Source of the DNA: Mycobacterium sp. Marseille-P9652
Lineage (GTDB): Bacteria > Actinomycetota > Actinomycetes > Mycobacteriales > Mycobacteriaceae
Assembly: GCF_902652685.1 (NCBI RefSeq)
Contig: NZ_CACRUY010000045.1
Coordinates: 1 to 46,067 of the forward strand
DNA: 46,067 bases
Direction: 5' to 3'
The position numbers and the translations under genes are program-made. Positions within the stretch are counted from its first letter, which is position 1; every line of letters starts with the position of its first letter. Below the pieces are notes generated by a model. It was not told the origin of the DNA and made no database searches. It was given only the letters and a program-made list of their open reading frames with translations. Shown here piece by piece: positions 5,745 to 22,621 of this stretch.

Positions 5745-6368
5745 CTAACGCGGCCCGAACTGGCGGTCGCCGGCGTCGCCCAGGCCGGGCACGATGAAGG
5801 CGACGTCGTTGAGCCCGTCGTCGACGGCGGCGGTGAACAGCCGCGCGCCGGGGGCCGCCTTCTCCAGCGCCGCAACGCCTTCCGGGGCCGCGACCGCGCA
5901 GAGCACGGTGATGTCGGTCGCGCCGCGATCGCGCAGCAGGCCCACCGTGTACACCAGCGAGCCGCCCGTGGCGAGCATCGGGTCGAGGACCATGACGGGC
6001 ACCCCGGCCAGGTCGTCGGGCAGCGACTCGAAATACCCTGCGGCACGGTGGGTTTCCTCGTCGCGGGCCACGCCGACGAATCCGACCCTCGACTCGGGCG
6101 ACAGGGCGAGCGCCTGGTCCACCATGCCCAGCCCGGCGCGCAGCACGGGCACCAGCAGCGGCGGGTCGGCCAGCCGCACGCCCGCCGTTTCGGCCAGCGG
6201 CGTCCGGAACGGGAACGTCGCGCGCGCCGCGTCGCGGGTGGCCTCGTAGAACAGCATCGCGGTCAGGTCGCGCAGCGCGGCGCGGAAGCCGGCGCTGCCG
6301 GTGCGTTCGTCGCGCATCGCCGTCAGCCGCGCGGCCACAAGCGGGTGATCGACGACGCGTAGCTCCAC
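5745..6368 (-). CDS. upp: Uracil phosphoribosyltransferase
   Basis: A 207-residue enzyme making UMP from uracil and PRPP in pyrimidine salvage. Diagnostic motifs are [10 protein letters not shown], the PRPP loop [13 protein letters not shown], and the C-terminal uracil-binding segment [12 protein letters not shown]. The GTG at 6368 gives the M. tuberculosis Rv3309c length of 207; a TAACCT box lies 8 bases before it on the minus strand (6377-6382), suggesting a leaderless mRNA. It is transcribed divergently from sapM and converges on pmmB. With deoD here and cdd-deoA-add nearby it completes a nucleoside salvage cluster. Confidence 0.95.
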
Positions 6369-16327: not shown

Positions 16328-18082
16328 ATGATCCAGCAGCATCGGTACGACGTGGTGATCGTCGGCGCCGGCGGCGCCGGGATGCGGGCGGCCGTCGAGG
16401 CCGGGCCCCGCGTGCGCACCGCCGTGCTGACCAAGCTCTATCCCACCCGCAGCCACACCGGCGCGGCCCAGGGCGGAATGTGCGCGGCGCTGGCCAACGT
16501 CGAGGACGACAACTGGGAGTGGCACACGTTCGACACGGTCAAGGGCGGCGACTACCTCGCCGACCAGGACGCCGTGGAGATCATGTGCAAGGAGGCCATC
16601 GACGCGGTGCTCGACCTCGAGAAGATGGGGATGCCGTTCAACCGCACCCCCGAGGGCCGCATCGACCAGCGCCGCTTCGGCGGGCACACCCGCGACCACG
16701 GAAAGGCGCCCGTGCGGCGCGCCTGCTACGCCGCCGACCGCACCGGCCACATGATTCTGCAGACGCTCTACCAGAACTGCGTCAAGCACGACGTGCAGTT
16801 CTTCAACGAGTTCTACGCGCTGGACCTGGTGCTCACCGAGACCCCGGGCGGCCCCATCGCCACCGGCGTGGTGGCCTACGAGCTGGCCACCGGCGAGATC
16901 CACGTCTTCCACGCCAAAGCCGTCGTGATCGCCACCGGCGGGTCCGGGCGGATGTACAAGACCACCTCGAACGCGCACACCCTGACCGGCGACGGCATCG
17001 GCATCGTCTTCCGCAAGGGACTTCCCTTGGAAGACATGGAGTTTCACCAGTTCCACCCGACCGGCCTGGCCGGGCTGGGCATCCTCATCTCCGAGGCCGT
17101 GCGCGGCGAGGGCGGCCGGCTGCTCAACGGCGAGGGCGAGCGCTTCATGGAGCGGTACGCGCCGACGATCGTGGACCTGGCGCCGCGCGACATCGTCGCG
17201 CGCTCCATGGTTTTGGAGGTTTTGGAGGGGCGCGGCGCCGGCCCGCACAAGGACTACGTCTACATCGACGTCCGCCACCTCGGCGAGGACGTGCTGGAGG
17301 CCAAGCTGCCCGACATCACCGAGTTCGCCCGCACGTACCTGGGCGTCGACCCGGTGCACGAGCTGGTGCCGGTGTACCCGACGTGCCACTACGTGATGGG
17401 CGGCATCCCCACCACCGTGACCGGACAGGTGTTGCGGGACAACACCTCAACCGTGCCGGGCCTGTACGCGGCCGGCGAGTGCGCGTGCGTGTCGGTGCAC
17501 GGCGCCAACCGGCTGGGCACCAACTCGCTGCTGGACATCAACGTGTTCGGCCGCCGCGCGGGCATCGCCGCCGCGAATTTCGCACGCAGCCACGACTTCT
17601 GCGACATGCCGCCACAGCCCGAGGCGATGGTCGTCGGGTGGGTGAGCGACATCCTCAACGAGCACGGCAACGAACGCGTCGCCGACATCCGGGCCGCGCT
17701 GCAGCAGTCGATGGACAACAACGCCGCGGTGTTCCGCACCGAGGAGACGCTCAAGCAGGCGCTCACCGACATCCACGCGCTCAAGGAGCGCTATTCGCGA
17801 ATCACTGTGCAGGACAAAGGGAAACGCTACAACAGCGACCTCCTGGAGGCCATCGAGCTGGGGTTCCTGCTGGAGCTGGCGGAGGTCACCGTCGTCGGGG
17901 CGCTCAACCGCAAGGAGTCCCGCGGCGGGCATGCCCGCGAGGACTACCCCAACCGCGACGACGTCAACTACATGCGCCACACGATGGCCTACAAGCAGGG
18001 CACCGACCTGCTGAGCGACATCGCGCTGGACTTCAAGCCCGTCGTGCAGACCCGCTACGAGCCCAAGGAACGGAAGTACTGA
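16328..18082 (+). CDS. sdhA: Succinate dehydrogenase flavoprotein subunit SdhA
   Basis: A 584-residue FAD subunit that oxidises succinate to fumarate. The dinucleotide fold VVIVGAGGAGMRA is at residues 9-21, and RSHTGAAQGG (41-50) contains His43, the expected covalent flavin site. QFHPTGL, the substrate loop RGEGGRLLN and the histidine/arginine segment PTCHYVMGGIPT are in place. It is close in length to M. tuberculosis Rv3318 (590). It shares one base with the start of sdhB (TGATG). Confidence 0.96.
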   Translation: MIQQHRYDVVIVGAGGAGMRAAVEAGPRVRTAVLTKLYPTRSHTGAAQGGMCAALANVEDDNWEWHTFDTVKGGDYLADQDAVEIMCKEAIDAVLDLEKMGMPFNRTPEGRIDQRRFGGHTRDHGKAPVRRACYAADRTGHMILQTLYQNCVKHDVQFFNEFYALDLVLTETPGGPIATGVVAYELATGEIHVFHAKAVVIATGGSGRMYKTTSNAHTLTGDGIGIVFRKGLPLEDMEFHQFHPTGLAGLGILISEAVRGEGGRLLNGEGERFMERYAPTIVDLAPRDIVARSMVLEVLEGRGAGPHKDYVYIDVRHLGEDVLEAKLPDITEFARTYLGVDPVHELVPVYPTCHYVMGGIPTTVTGQVLRDNTSTVPGLYAAGECACVSVHGANRLGTNSLLDINVFGRRAGIAAANFARSHDFCDMPPQPEAMVVGWVSDILNEHGNERVADIRAALQQSMDNNAAVFRTEETLKQALTDIHALKERYSRITVQDKGKRYNSDLLEAIELGFLLELAEVTVVGALNRKESRGGHAREDYPNRDDVNYMRHTMAYKQGTDLLSDIALDFKPVVQTRYEPKERKY

Positions 18083-18882
18083 TGACCGACACGGTCGACG
18101 CGGACGTCGAGCGGGGACCCGAGCCGCCACTGCCGCCGATCCCCGAGGGCGCGGTGCTGGTGACGGTGAAGATCGCCCGGTACAACCCCGACCAGCCGGA
18201 GGCGTTCGCGGAAACCGGCGGCTGGCAGTCGTTCCGGGTGCCCTGCCTGCCGAGCGATCGCCTGCTCAACCTGCTGATCTACATCAAGAGCTACCTCGAC
18301 GGGACGCTGACCTTTCGGCGGTCCTGCGCGCACGGCGTGTGCGGCTCGGACGCGATGCGGATCAACGGCGTCAACCGGCTGGCCTGCAAGGTCTTGATGC
18401 GCGACCTGCTTCCCGAGAAGCGCGGCAAGCAACTGACGATCACCGTCGAGCCGATCCGCGGGCTGCCGGTGGAGAAGGACCTCGTGGTCGACATGGAGCC
18501 CTTCTTCGACGCCTACCGCGCGGTGAAGCCCTACCTGGTGACGAGCGGCAATCCGCCTACGCGCGAACGCATTCAGAGCCAGACCGACCGCGCCCGCTAC
18601 GACGACACCACCAAGTGCATCCTCTGCGCGGCGTGCACCACCAGTTGCCCGATCTTCTGGCACGAGGGCAGCTACTACGGCCCGGCGGCGATCGTCAACG
18701 CGCACCGCTTCATCTTCGACAGCCGCGACGAGGCCGCCGCCGAGCGGCTCGACATCCTCAACGAGGTCGACGGCGTGTGGCGGTGCCGCACCACCTTCAA
18801 TTGCACGGAGGCCTGCCCGCGCGGCATTCAGATCACCAAGGCGATCCAGGAAGTCAAGCGCGCGTTGATGTTCACGCGCTGA
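18082..18882 (+). CDS. sdhB: Succinate dehydrogenase iron-sulfur subunit SdhB
   Basis: A 266-residue electron-transfer subunit. The [2Fe-2S] site is CAHGVCGSDAM plus NRLAC. The [4Fe-4S] site begins CILCAACTTSCP, and CTEACPRGI completes the [4Fe-4S] and [3Fe-4S] clusters. It passes electrons from SdhA to the quinone site in SdhCD. It ends the operon and its stop codon is 7 bases from the converging PknD-like gene. Confidence 0.96.
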   Translation: MTDTVDADVERGPEPPLPPIPEGAVLVTVKIARYNPDQPEAFAETGGWQSFRVPCLPSDRLLNLLIYIKSYLDGTLTFRRSCAHGVCGSDAMRINGVNRLACKVLMRDLLPEKRGKQLTITVEPIRGLPVEKDLVVDMEPFFDAYRAVKPYLVTSGNPPTRERIQSQTDRARYDDTTKCILCAACTTSCPIFWHEGSYYGPAAIVNAHRFIFDSRDEAAAERLDILNEVDGVWRCRTTFNCTEACPRGIQITKAIQEVKRALMFTR

Positions 18883-18889
18883 GCTCCGT

Positions 18890-21448
18890 TCAGGCGGGCG
18901 GGAGCTTCAGCACGCGGTTGTTGCCGGAGTCGGCGACGTACACATTGCCGGCGGTGTCGACGCCGATGCCCTGGGGACGCTTGACTCCTTTGAACGGCAA
19001 CGTTATCGACGTATTGGAGGCCCGGAGAAACTCGGTGACGCGATTGTCGTTGTCCTCGGTCACGTATACGTTGCCGGTGGTGTCGACGGCCACGTCGTCG
19101 GGATGTCCGACGACGAACGGCAGGACGGTCGGAACCGTCGCTGTCCACGGCAGTTTCAGCACCCGCTCGTTGTCGCGATCGACGATGTAGAGGGCGCCGT
19201 CGCGACTTACGGTCACGGCCGAGGGGCACGCCAGGCCGCTCAACGGCAACTCCGTCTGCTCGGTCGAATTCGCGAGCAAGTCCACCACCCGGTTGTGCGC
19301 GCAGTCGCTGACCACGACGACGCGATCGTTGCCGGGGCCGTGCAAAGCGATCGCCACGCCCGAGGGGTCCCGGAGATCGGCGAACGGGAGCACGATCGGG
19401 TTGCTCGACCCGGCCGTCACCTCCAGCACGCGGTGCAGCGCGGGCTCGGTGACCACCAAGTCACCCGCGTCGTCGACCGATATGTCGTCGGGGTGATCGA
19501 GGCCGGCCAGAGGCACCACGGTCGGGGTGGTCGAGCCCGCGGCCAGTTCCAGCACCCGGCTGTTGCCGCTGTCGGTGACGTAGACGTCACCCTTCGCGTC
19601 GACCGCGATCTCCTCGGGGTTGTCGAGACCGGTGAACGGCAACACGATCTGGCCCCGGTCTTTCGCGGAATGGAACGGGAACTGGTCGGTGATCCGCAGG
19701 AACGCGGCGACGGCGATCACCGCGACCACCACCACCGCCGCCGCGGTCAACACCGCGCCGCGGCCGAGTCTTCTCGACGGGGTACGGGCCGCGACCGGCA
19801 TGGTGGGTGCGGTGTCCCGCAGCGCGACGGCAGGGTCGCTGACGGCGGCTGCCGGCGCCGCGTTCGGGGAGACGTCGGTAAGGGCCGCGCGAGCGGCCAC
19901 GGCCAGGTCATGGGCCGACTGGTAGCGGTCCTCCGGGTCCTTCGCCATGCCCCGTGCGATCACCGCGTCGAAGCCGGCGGGTATCGCCGGGTCGACGCCG
20001 CTGGGTTTGGGCGGCTCGTTGGTGCGATGGGCGACCACCAGGCCCTCCACCCCGCCACCGCTGAAAGGCAGCCGCCCGGTGAGGCATTCGTAGAGGACGC
20101 AGGCAAGCGAGTACACGTCCGCACGAGCGTCGACGACCCTTCCGTCGCTGCCCGCGCTGAAGCGCTCCGGGGCCATGTACGCCGGGCTTCCCGGGGCGAC
20201 GTTGGTGAGCGTCAGGCGACCGGCGTCGGCCTCGTGGACGAGCCCGAAATCGATGAGGTACACGAAATCGTCGCCGACCGTCAGCAGGTTCGTCGGCTTC
20301 ACGTCGCGATGTACCAGCCCGACCTTGTGCGCGGCGTCCAGCGCTGCCGCAACCTGTTCGACCACCCGCACGGCCTTCTGCGGACTCATCGCCCCGTCGC
20401 GCTTGAGCACCTCCTTCAGGTCGATGCCATCGACGATCGGCATCACCAGGTACAGGCGCCCGTCGATCTCGCCCGTCTCGTAGATCGGGATGATGTTCGG
20501 GCTGGCCAGCCGGCCCGCCGCGTACGCCTCGCGGCGGAATCGCTCCCGAAATCCCGGCTCCGCGGCCAATTCCGGCTGCAGCAACTTGACGGCCACATCG
20601 CGGCCCAGCATCGTGTCGTGGGCCCGATACACCGCGCCCATGCTGCCCTGACCGAGCTTGTCGAAAAGCCGGTAGCGGCCGAACTCCACTTCTTTCGGAG
20701 GCCCCGCCTCCGAATCCGCCGCGGCGGTCGGGGGTGCCAAGGCGTTGTGCGCGGCGACGGACAACTCCCGGGCCGTTTGGTAGCGGTCCTCGGGGTCTCG
20801 TGCCATCCCGCGCGCAATCACCTCGTCGAAGGCCGCCGGGATCGTCGGGTCGACATCGGTCGGCCTGGGCGGGCCGTCCTCACCCGGAACGGCGGCCTGA
20901 CCGGTCAGGCATTCGAAGAGGACGGAGGTCAGGCCGTAGATGTCGGTGCGCGCATCGACGGGGTCGCCGCCGGTCGGGGCGGCCCCGAAGTTGATGAGGT
21001 ACACGAATGCGCCGCCCACCAACAGGTTTGAGGCCGTCACATCGCCGTGGACCAGCCCGGCGACGTGGGTGGCTTCCAGCGCCGAGGCGGCCTGCACGAC
21101 CACCCGCACGGCCACCTCCGGGCGCAGCGGCCCGCTGCGGCTCAGCAGATCGCGCACGGTGATGGCATCGGCGACGGCGGGCATCACGAGGAATTGCCGG
21201 CCGTCGATCTCGCCGGCCTCATATATCGGGAGGATGTTCGGGTCGGTGAGCCGGGCCGCGATGGAGACCTCGCGCCGGAAGCGCTCCTGATCGCGCACCT
21301 CGGCCGCCGACTCCGGCGAGAGCACCTTGATCGTGACGTCGCGGTTCATCACCGTGTCCCGGGCCTGATACACCGTGCCGGTGCCATCCGATCGGATCGC
21401 CTTCAGCAACCGGTAACGCCCGAAGACCTCGCCTTCCACTCCGTCCAC
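18890..21448 (-). CDS. PknD-like receptor Ser/Thr kinase with tandem pseudokinase and kinase domains and NHL sensor
   Basis: An 852-residue transmembrane kinase. Domain 1 (about 10-240) is a degenerate copy: it keeps Lys41 and Glu60, but HRD/K is HGDVTASN (134-141, catalytic Lys replaced by Thr) and DFG is NFG (153-155). Domain 2 (about 257-520) looks active: glycine loop LGQGSMG (265-271), Lys288, HRDVKPTN (380-387), DFG (400-402), APE (426-428), with threonines in the activation loop. One helix (about 564-584) leads to an outside six-bladed NHL propeller (600-852) with repeats such as GNVYVTDSGNNRV, as in PknD. M. tuberculosis PknD has a single kinase domain (664 residues). The GTG at 21448 follows AGGAGG by 6 bases. 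A diguanylate cyclase lies 105 bases upstream on the same strand. Confidence 0.92.
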   Translation of the reverse strand: MDGVEGEVFGRYRLLKAIRSDGTGTVYQARDTVMNRDVTIKVLSPESAAEVRDQERFRREVSIAARLTDPNILPIYEAGEIDGRQFLVMPAVADAITVRDLLSRSGPLRPEVAVRVVVQAASALEATHVAGLVHGDVTASNLLVGGAFVYLINFGAAPTGGDPVDARTDIYGLTSVLFECLTGQAAVPGEDGPPRPTDVDPTIPAAFDEVIARGMARDPEDRYQTARELSVAAHNALAPPTAAADSEAGPPKEVEFGRYRLFDKLGQGSMGAVYRAHDTMLGRDVAVKLLQPELAAEPGFRERFRREAYAAGRLASPNIIPIYETGEIDGRLYLVMPIVDGIDLKEVLKRDGAMSPQKAVRVVEQVAAALDAAHKVGLVHRDVKPTNLLTVGDDFVYLIDFGLVHEADAGRLTLTNVAPGSPAYMAPERFSAGSDGRVVDARADVYSLACVLYECLTGRLPFSGGGVEGLVVAHRTNEPPKPSGVDPAIPAGFDAVIARGMAKDPEDRYQSAHDLAVAARAALTDVSPNAAPAAAVSDPAVALRDTAPTMPVAARTPSRRLGRGAVLTAAAVVVVAVIAVAAFLRITDQFPFHSAKDRGQIVLPFTGLDNPEEIAVDAKGDVYVTDSGNSRVLELAAGSTTPTVVPLAGLDHPDDISVDDAGDLVVTEPALHRVLEVTAGSSNPIVLPFADLRDPSGVAIALHGPGNDRVVVVSDCAHNRVVDLLANSTEQTELPLSGLACPSAVTVSRDGALYIVDRDNERVLKLPWTATVPTVLPFVVGHPDDVAVDTTGNVYVTEDNDNRVTEFLRASNTSITLPFKGVKRPQGIGVDTAGNVYVADSGNNRVLKLPPA

Positions 21449-21553
21449 CGCAAGCCTCCTGAAGAGCGCACGAAATGGTGCCTGGATGCTACCAATCGGT
21501 TGAGCCCGGTCCGCCTAAGTCGGATGCGCGGCGGGCGTCTCCGGCGCGCCGGG

Positions 21554-22621
21554 TCAACACAATTCGTGGTGGCTGCTCCGGTTGCCACCCAGTCGTTTCG
21601 CCGCGTACATCGCGGCATCGGAGGCGGTGATCAAACCGTGCAGGAGCGCCTGCGGCTCGTCGGCCGGTATGTCGTCGAGACGCGCGCAGGCGGTGCCGAT
21701 ACTCGCCGTGACCCCGGCGGTCGAGTTTTCGATCGCCACGCACAGCTTCGCGGCCAGCGCCTCGGCGTTGCAGGTCACGGCGGTGCCGGCCAACAGGAAC
21801 TCCTCGCCACCGCTGCGCGCCACCACCGCCTGGTTGTCGGCGGCGGCCAGCAGCGCCTGGGCGACCTGGACCAGCGCGTGGTCGCCCGCGGCGTGGCCAT
21901 TGCGGTCGTTGAGGGCCTTGAAGTTGTCCAGGTCGATCAGCATGACGACCAGGTGTGAGTCGATGCCCCGCCGGGCCAGGATCATCCCCAGCGCCTCGTG
22001 CTGGAAGGCGCGCCGGTTGAGCAGGCCCGTCAGCGGGTCGCGGTCGGCCTGCAGCAGGTCTCCGGACAGGGCGCGCACCAAAATCCGGATCGCCAGCGGC
22101 AGCGCGATGTTGACCTCGATCACCAGCCAGAGATCCACCCCGGCCAGGTTGGGGTGCCCGAACCTGCCCAACTCCACGGCCTCCCAGGCGCCGACGGCGG
22201 CCGCGACCGCGAAGTTGTACAGCACGAACGCGGTCGTGTGGAAGAAGGCCATGTAGGCGCCGAAGGTCGCGAAGGCGACGCAGCCCATCAGGGCGGCCAG
22301 CGGGTTGGGGTGCGCGAGGCAGGCCAGGGCGGTGGCCGTGTTGCAGGTGATGCCGAAGGCGATCGACTGCGGACGCGTCGGCCAGCGCCATACCCACAGC
22401 AGGACCCCCGCGATTCCGCCGGCGACGGCGACAAGCGTCATCGCCACCGGCACGGTTCCGCGGGGACCGTCCGACCCGGCCAGCAGCGCGACGAGGCACA
22501 GCACCATCGACGCCGCGATCGAGGCCATCACGGCGCGGGTGGCGCCGCTGAGGCCCCGCGAAGCCAGGTAGCCGGAGAGCCAGTCGTACTGATCGGCCCG
22601 CCGGCGAAACAGCGCGGTCAT
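21554..22621 (-). CDS. Membrane diguanylate cyclase (GGDEF family)
   Basis: A 355-residue protein with about six N-terminal membrane helices (residues 28-182) and a GGDEF domain (about 190-350). The active-site loop is SGGEEF (270-275), so catalysis of c-di-GMP from two GTP is expected; DRDPLTGLLNRRAF and LIDLDNFKALND mark the domain start and metal/GTP residues. No RxxD inhibitory site is seen five residues before GGEEF, so product inhibition may be weak. No EAL domain is fused. ATG at 22621 is used. It is probably co-transcribed with the kinase gene downstream. Confidence 0.9.
   Translation of the reverse strand: MTALFRRRADQYDWLSGYLASRGLSGATRAVMASIAASMVLCLVALLAGSDGPRGTVPVAMTLVAVAGGIAGVLLWVWRWPTRPQSIAFGITCNTATALACLAHPNPLAALMGCVAFATFGAYMAFFHTTAFVLYNFAVAAAVGAWEAVELGRFGHPNLAGVDLWLVIEVNIALPLAIRILVRALSGDLLQADRDPLTGLLNRRAFQHEALGMILARRGIDSHLVVMLIDLDNFKALNDRNGHAAGDHALVQVAQALLAAADNQAVVARSGGEEFLLAGTAVTCNAEALAAKLCVAIENSTAGVTASIGTACARLDDIPADEPQALLHGLITASDAAMYAAKRLGGNRSSHHELC

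What the first reader, a model, noticed from the sequence alone, without database searches (positions are those of the whole stretch)
18890..21448. Receptor kinase with tandem pseudokinase and kinase domains on a PknD chassis
Seen: two homologous kinase domains in one chain. The first has lost the catalytic Lys (HGDVTASN) and the DFG aspartate (NFG) but keeps Lys41 and Glu60; the second keeps all catalytic residues. One membrane helix and a six-bladed NHL propeller follow, as in PknD. Known: mycobacterial PknD has one kinase domain. Inference: the pseudokinase may regulate the neighbouring kinase in cis, in the manner of JAK JH2-JH1, a layout I do not know from described mycobacterial kinases.
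Basis: partly seen in the sequence, partly recalled or inferred. Interest (0 to 1): 0.8.

Follow-up and report, generated by a model that had tools for sequence, protein, structure and literature searches.

The report
Receptor kinase with built-in dead kinase
A small group of non-tuberculous mycobacteria carry a membrane receptor enzyme whose kinase was once doubled, and the front copy has repeatedly lost working parts while being kept, which suggests it now serves as a regulator of the working copy.

Summary
The minus-strand ORF 18890-21448 (852 aa) encodes kinase-like domain D1 (aa 9-237), an intact Hanks-type kinase D2 (256-525), one membrane helix and a six-bladed NHL propeller. The layout occurs in 16 of 396 Mycobacterium genomes searched, beside sdhB in 14 of 20 testable copies; D1 and D2 arose from one tandem duplication. 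Shared instead: first Gly-loop Gly lost in 22 of 22, HRD Arg in 21 of 22, activation segment plus helix G in the same 16 of 22, by at least two independent deletions. HRD Asp and Asn171 stay in 22 of 22. D1 is under purifying selection (dN/dS 0.04-0.47), looser than D2. Of 77 columns conserved in both domains two are fixed differently; one is the PknB Leu33 (back-to-back dimer) position. Best reading: a pseudokinase kept as regulatory dimer partner of D2. Activator versus inhibitor, cis versus trans, are untested. My paper searches listed no description of it. New variant of a known kind.

The parts
18890..21448 (-). tandem pseudokinase-kinase receptor, 852 aa, GTG start
   Evidence: full-length homologues
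20738..21424 (-). D1, kinase-like domain (aa 9-237), non-catalytic by sequence
21347..21349 (-). Met34 of D1, position of PknB Leu33 (N-lobe back-to-back dimer); Met in 22 of 22
21026..21049 (-). D1 catalytic loop HGDVTASN (aa 134-141): HRD Arg is Gly, catalytic Lys is Thr, Asp136 and Asn141 kept
20984..20992 (-). NFG in place of DFG (aa 153-155); private to this sequence among 22
20945..20983 (-). 13-residue remnant of the activation segment of D1 (aa 156-168), no APE motif
20684..20737 (-). linker between D1 and D2 (aa 238-255), low model confidence
   Evidence: pLDDT under 50 at 239-252
19874..20683 (-). D2, Ser/Thr kinase domain with all catalytic residues (aa 256-525)
20606..20608 (-). 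Leu281 of D2, position of PknB Leu33; Leu in 21 of 22
19697..19753 (-). transmembrane helix (aa 566-584)
   Evidence: mean hydropathy 2.96
18899..19627 (-). six-bladed NHL propeller (aa 608-850); best natural solved relative is the PknD sensor 1rwi (designed Pizza propellers score higher)
21477..21495 (-). upstream element with TAGCAT (possible -10 box); TAGCAT in 19 of 19 loci aligned
21455..21460 (-). AGGAGG, likely ribosome-binding site
18082..18882 (+). neighbour read as sdhB (name from recall, no family search made), convergent, 7 bases between the stop codons

Best explanation
This is a PknD-like receptor Ser/Thr kinase whose kinase domain was duplicated in tandem once, before the species carrying it diverged. 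The C-terminal copy D2 remains the enzyme (shown by sequence). The N-terminal copy D1 has lost what is needed to phosphorylate proteins (in 16 of 22 members the activation segment, P+1 loop and helix G) while keeping its fold and its N-lobe (shown by sequence and model). Inferred: D1 is kept as a non-catalytic dimer partner. Its N-lobe packs back-to-back on the N-lobe of D2, in the same chain or a partner chain, in the way two PknB or PknD kinase domains activate each other, so that D2 is held in, or switched to, its active state by the propeller sensor. Because most D1 lack the front-to-front parts, they could act as activator but neither as enzyme nor as ordinary trans-phosphorylation partner.
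For: One duplication: D1 22 of 22 in one clade, D2 22 of 22 in one clade, each 100/99, sisters at 100/97. D1 dN/dS is 0.04-0.47 in 26 close pairs, above that of D2 in 25 of 26, so constrained but relaxed. Activation segment and helix F-H region are short together in 16 of 22 and full-length together in 6 of 22; one origin for all three groups of deletions is rejected (AU p 1.7e-130; groups named after seeing trees), while groups A and C alone could share one (p 0.229). The model keeps the fold and has no helix G in D1. Among 77 columns at least 90% conserved in both domains only two are fixed differently: Arg19/Gly266 and Met34/Leu281, the latter at PknB Leu33. Equivalents of PknB Arg10 (R in 22 of 22) and Asp76 (21 E, 1 D) are retained in D1. 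L33D, D76A and V222D PknB mutants were solved to study dimerization (PMC8541300, passages); N-lobe dimerization activates PknD and PknB (PMC3601408, passages).
Against: No activity data. The dimer-face residues could simply be inherited, and three positions are few; one hit among two differing columns is weak statistically, and 7 of 12 single kinases also have I or M at that position, one of 12 also has Arg for the first Gly. The relative placement of D1 and D2 is not resolved (pTM 0.56, linker pLDDT under 50). Residue loss is otherwise patchy, as relaxed constraint would give. The joint loss of the two parts rests on only 2-3 independent contrasts (p 0.5). 13 of 22 D1 keep all five of Lys72, Glu91, Asp166, Asn171 and Asp184 (PKA names), so nucleotide binding is not excluded there.
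Confidence: 0.42

Rival explanations
1. JAK-type autoinhibition: D1 packs on D2 in the resting state and restrains it; ligand binding to the propeller releases it.
For: Same domain order as JAK JH2-JH1 (recalled); D1 is N-terminal, joined by an 18-residue linker, conserved and degenerate.
Against: No residue or contact evidence for an inhibitory face; the retained positions examined are those of an activating dimer.
Confidence: 0.2
2. Scaffold: D1 is a phospho-acceptor or docking platform for another protein, as the MviN pseudokinase is for FhaA.
For: A mycobacterial precedent exists (PMC12599244 and PMC3601408, passages); lost parts with kept fold.
Against: D1 is not of the MviN (ActPs3) type: it keeps the HRD Asp in 22 of 22 and the DFG Asp in 21 of 22. 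The neighbours tested show no evident signalling partner.
Confidence: 0.17
3. Slow decay: D1 is a relic on its way out, tolerated because D2 works.
For: Piecemeal, lineage-specific residue losses, repeated deletions, faster change than D2; a broken remnant of the whole gene at the sdh locus in one MAG (L070).
Against: dN/dS below 0.5 in all 26 pairs; 53 of 237 D1 sites invariant in 22. The 22 were read as open frames to begin with, so their openness is no independent evidence; and the searches started from D1, so a gene that lost D1 alone would have been missed.
Confidence: 0.15
4. D1 keeps a different, nucleotide-dependent activity or is a nucleotide sensor.
For: HRD Asp and Asn171 in 22 of 22; full five-residue nucleotide and metal set in 13 of 22.
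Against: First Gly lost in 22 of 22, beta3 Lys replaced in 6, DFG Asp lost in the window's own copy.
Confidence: 0.06

Closest known systems
PknD of Mycobacterium tuberculosis (receptor kinase with NHL propeller)
   Same: Kinase, one membrane helix, NHL sensor; the propeller matches 1rwi at 4.5e-56
   Different: One kinase domain, in the pst operon (PMC1262709, passages) rather than beside sdhB; another kinase-NHL protein of the window's genome matches 1rwi better, 215 against 194 bits
PknE and PknB kinase domains
   Same: D2 and D1 are nearest to PknE among solved kinase chains; N-lobe dimer positions retained
   Different: PknB carries PASTA domains; neither has a second kinase domain (recall)
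JAK family JH2-JH1
   Same: Pseudokinase N-terminal to an active kinase in one chain (recalled)
   Different: Tyrosine kinases of animals bound to separate receptors; here the pair arose by its own duplication; mode of regulation untested
MviN pseudokinase with FhaA (ActPs3)
   Same: A mycobacterial membrane-protein pseudokinase with a role in signalling
   Different: VALT, no HRD, no DFG (PMC12599244); D1 of the window keeps Lys and HRD Asp; MviN is not in tandem with a kinase (recall)
Plant tandem kinase-pseudokinase proteins (Yr15/WTK1)
   Same: Kinase and pseudokinase in one chain (search listing)
   Different: Eukaryotic, disease resistance
One-domain membrane pseudokinases of other Mycobacteriaceae genera (seen here)
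   Same: Also lack the activation segment and align with D1 nearly end to end
   Different: One domain, HRD Asp lost, Pro-rich tails; the four put in the tree form a separate clade

Membership tests
Hanks-type receptor Ser/Thr kinase (PknB/PknD kind) | Kinase domain with Lys, HRD Asp, DFG Asp, activation segment with APE | tested here: met
   D2 of the window; Foldseek TMt 0.93 to PknE
Hanks-type receptor Ser/Thr kinase (PknB/PknD kind) | Single membrane helix between kinase and extracellular sensor | tested here: met
   hydropathy only
PknD orthologue | NHL propeller sensor | tested here: met
PknD orthologue | Single kinase domain | tested here: not met
   two domains
PknD orthologue | Best PknD match of its genome | tested here: not met
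   another kinase-NHL protein scores higher against 1rwi
Pseudokinase (loss of at least one of Lys72, Asp166, Asp184) | Triad residue lost in D1 of the window | tested here: met
   DFG Asp is Asn153; across the family 7 of 22 meet this triad rule
Pseudokinase | No phosphotransfer activity | not testable with these tools
   no assay
ActPs1 (PMC12599244) | Substitutions in all three catalytic residues | tested here: not met
   D1 keeps Lys41 and Asp136; helix G loss is shared with about 60% of ActPs1
ActPs2 | beta3 Lys to Arg and HRD Asp to Asn | tested here: not met
ActPs3 (MviN) | VALT, no HRD, no DFG | tested here: not met
DYD | beta3 Arg, no aC Glu, DYD motif | tested here: not met
DLHK | No membrane region, degraded ATP and DFG motifs | tested here: not met
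GLW and CP1 pseudokinases | Family motifs | not tested
   those sections of PMC12599244 were not read
JAK-type JH2-JH1 | Pseudokinase directly N-terminal of an active kinase | tested here: met
   (by sequence)
JAK-type JH2-JH1 | Pseudokinase restrains the kinase | not testable with these tools
   no assay

The most novel reading that the evidence does not exclude
A bacterial receptor kinase family that carries its own allosteric dimer partner: after one tandem duplication the front kinase was turned into a non-catalytic activator, with activation segment and helix G discarded together at least twice independently while the N-lobe back-to-back face was kept and made asymmetric (Met in D1, Leu in D2). 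This would be convergent pseudokinase birth caught at several stages in living species.
Probability: 0.3. Interest if true: 0.75.

Novelty: new variant of a known kind. Interest (0 to 1): 0.55.

Why it matters
It gives a natural series, in related bacteria, of a kinase domain at successive stages of becoming a pseudokinase while fused to its working sister. That makes it directly testable which parts of a kinase are dispensable for a regulatory role. It also shows that the usual three-residue test for pseudokinases would of the 22 D1 domains active although 12 of those 15 lack most of the activation segment, so surveys may miss such domains.

Tried and rejected
Rejected: (1) that Asn for the DFG Asp and the lost catalytic Lys are the conserved defect. 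(2) That the tandem is a PknD orthologue. My guess that the 895-aa kinase-NHL gene at G000:C6 is the pst-linked PknD also failed: its neighbours are an aminotransferase and a NIF3 protein. (3) Misassembly: 22 sequences from different species, strains and assemblies share the layout. (4) One origin for all deletions of the activation segment.

Led nowhere or incomplete: a Pkinase census in 30 genomes of the class, whose match list was cut, says nothing on other tandem kinases. The paired-contrast test of the two deletions had 2-3 contrasts, p 0.5. Nine paper searches answered (one search found nothing) listed no description of a tandem pseudokinase-kinase in mycobacteria; the library holds only open-licence papers. 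I saw passages or named sections of six papers: PMC12599244 (abstract, passages, sections 6, 7, 12, 13, 14), and passages of PMC3601408, PMC6333020, PMC6428115, PMC8541300 and PMC1262709.

Rows dropped or wrong: the tree left out four divergent kinases of the own genome (L085, L086, L090, L091), and fragments under 180 aa were left out of both trees; L070 (remnant) is not among the 22. In one search the E3198 pair was mislabelled as one single kinase, and its D2 row was mis-cut; both were put right. The D2 of M. intermedium is cut by its contig end. One search stopped with an error and was replaced. The AU tests used an alignment that still holds columns of the deletions, and groups chosen after seeing trees. 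The sdhB-side genes of L048 were not looked at.

Full report
What is there. The minus-strand ORF 18890-21448 starts with GTG behind AGGAGG and encodes 852 aa. Pfam finds two Pkinase stretches and NHL repeats. D1 spans aa 9-237, D2 256-525, one hydrophobic helix 566-584, and six NHL blades start at 608, 650, 692, 739, 780 and 822. AlphaFold2 on 15 sequences (mean pLDDT 74.6, pTM 0.56) gives two kinase folds; helix G (466-476) is present in D2 and absent in D1, and linker residues 239-252 have pLDDT under 50, so the arrangement of the two is not resolved. Foldseek's best match is PknE, TMt 0.93.

Spread. With D1 as query, 14 of 248 genomes of the genus matched at 1e-50. At 1e-45, 25 of 396 matched. 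Sixteen of these carry the tandem: the window's own and 14 others I read as full or contig-cut frames, and G259, which shows two matches in one 872-aa frame at the coordinates of sp. E3198 (L044). Of the other nine I read six, all one-kinase proteins; three (G005, G094, G233) were not read. In 401 genomes of the family 14 matched at 1e-42: four of the own genus (three with the tandem) and ten of three other genera, all ten one-domain. Among 33 loci of named records, 16 Mycobacterium loci hold two kinase domains in one frame (M. scrofulaceum, M. parascrofulaceum, M. gordonae, M. asiaticum, M. intermedium, sp. E3198 and two MAGs), one (L070) is a remnant, and 16 from other Actinomycetota have one full kinase domain; L058 shows a weak 39-residue second hit at a contig end.

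Place. The gene lies tail to tail beside the gene I read as sdhB (name from recall) in 14 of the 22 tandem copies; G059 is cut at that point by its contig end, asiaticum 1275 'b' was not looked at, and six copies (five M. asiaticum, one M. intermedium) show no sdh genes in the stretch held, though M. intermedium is cut at the 3' end. Three M. asiaticum strains have both an sdh-side copy and another. In the window 7 bases separate the two stop codons. TAGCAT stands upstream in 19 of 19 loci aligned, and a GGAGG box before the start in 18; in L039 the start I chose lies upstream of its GGAGG. A promoter is plausible, not shown.

Origin. With 73 kinase domains D1 (22 of 22) and D2 (22 of 22) are each one clade at 100/99 and sisters at 100/97; nearest outside are five single kinases, two of them with NHL-like tails by eye. 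One tandem duplication is the simplest account.

What D1 lost and kept, in 22 proteins (PKA names): first Gly of the loop lost 22 of 22 (20 Arg, 2 Gln); HRD Arg lost 21 of 22 (17 Gly, 2 Ala, 1 Thr, 1 Cys); activation segment shortened to 11-20 residues in 16 and 31-37 in 6; beta3 Lys to Arg in 6; helix C Glu lost in 5; catalytic-loop Lys lost in 9; DFG Asp lost in 1, the window's own; DFG Gly lost in 4. HRD Asp and Asn171 are kept in 22 of 22. Thirteen of 22 keep all five nucleotide and metal residues. D2 keeps its catalytic motifs in 20 of the 21 rows correctly cut there; G031 has DFE.

The two deletions go together: helix F to H is 8-23 residues in exactly the 16 with a short activation segment, and 30 in the other six. 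The 16 fall in three groups. Holding all three together is rejected (p 1.7e-130), as is the gordonae group with the asiaticum trio (p 6.9e-8); own-like with gordonae-like is not (p 0.229). So there were at least two independent deletions, three by parsimony on the best tree. The trio's remnant keeps APE while the other 13 do not.

Selection. In 26 close pairs D1 has dN/dS 0.04-0.47 and D2 0.04-0.25; D1 is higher in 25 of 26. Mean identity is 0.65 in D1 and 0.80 in D2; within D1 beta1-beta2 (0.82) and beta4-beta5 (0.76) are best kept, helix C (0.51) and the aG region (0.46) worst. 53 of 237 D1 sites are invariant.

The dimer face. Profile alignment to PknB places PknB Arg10, Leu33 and Asp76 at D1 Arg11, Met34 and Glu77 and at their D2 counterparts. 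They are R in 22 of 22 of both; Met in 22 of 22 (D1) and Leu in 21 of 22 (D2); E or D in all. Of 77 columns at least 90% conserved in both domains only Arg19/Gly266 and Met34/Leu281 differ; at the second position 12 single kinases have I4, M3, T3, K1, R1, and at the first G11, R1. That L33D, D76A and V222D PknB variants were made to study dimerization is in PMC8541300 (passages); that N-lobe dimerization activates PknD and PknB is in PMC3601408 (passages). That Leu33 lies at the centre of the back-to-back face and Val222 in helix G is recall.

Reading. D1 is a pseudokinase by lost parts rather than by a shared triad loss. Kept fold, kept N-lobe face and discarded substrate parts fit a non-catalytic dimer partner best; inhibition, scaffold and slow decay remain open, as scored. 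Against my reading: patchy residue loss, three interface positions only, no placement of the two domains, no biochemistry.

Comparison. In layout it resembles pseudokinase-kinase pairs such as JAK (recalled), but no inhibition was shown. D2 is a member of the receptor Ser/Thr kinases; the protein is not a PknD orthologue; D1 fits none of the five bacterial pseudokinase families whose features I read in PMC12599244 (ActPs1, ActPs2, ActPs3, DYD, DLHK), GLW and CP1 not being read. 'Tandem' and 'NHL' do not occur in that review's main text.

Noticed in passing
L093-L102: Ten one-domain membrane pseudokinases in three other genera of the family: HRD Asp lost, no activation segment, beta3 Arg in 10 of 10, Pro-rich tails with repeats of the form PCYPGYxHTPPPDGPC in most; the four put in the tree form one clade.
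   Followed up: partly
L103 (G195:C1:1339300-1341500): A single-domain Mycobacterium kinase with HGD and a short activation segment, sister to another own-genome kinase: the same kind of loss outside the tandem.
   Followed up: partly
L070, about 6001-6309: A broken remnant of the tandem gene at the sdh locus of a Mycobacterium MAG.
   Followed up: partly
window 21554-22621 (-): A GGDEF protein directly upstream of the tandem gene; among the 22 loci compared only sp. E3198 (L044) has it in the stretch held (86%).
   Followed up: no
L032 and L046: In two gordonae-like genomes a separate single kinase gene lies next to the tandem gene on the other strand.
   Followed up: no
window 21477-21495 (-): Upstream element around TAGCAT, conserved in 19 of 19 aligned loci, including copies away from the sdh locus.
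   Followed up: partly
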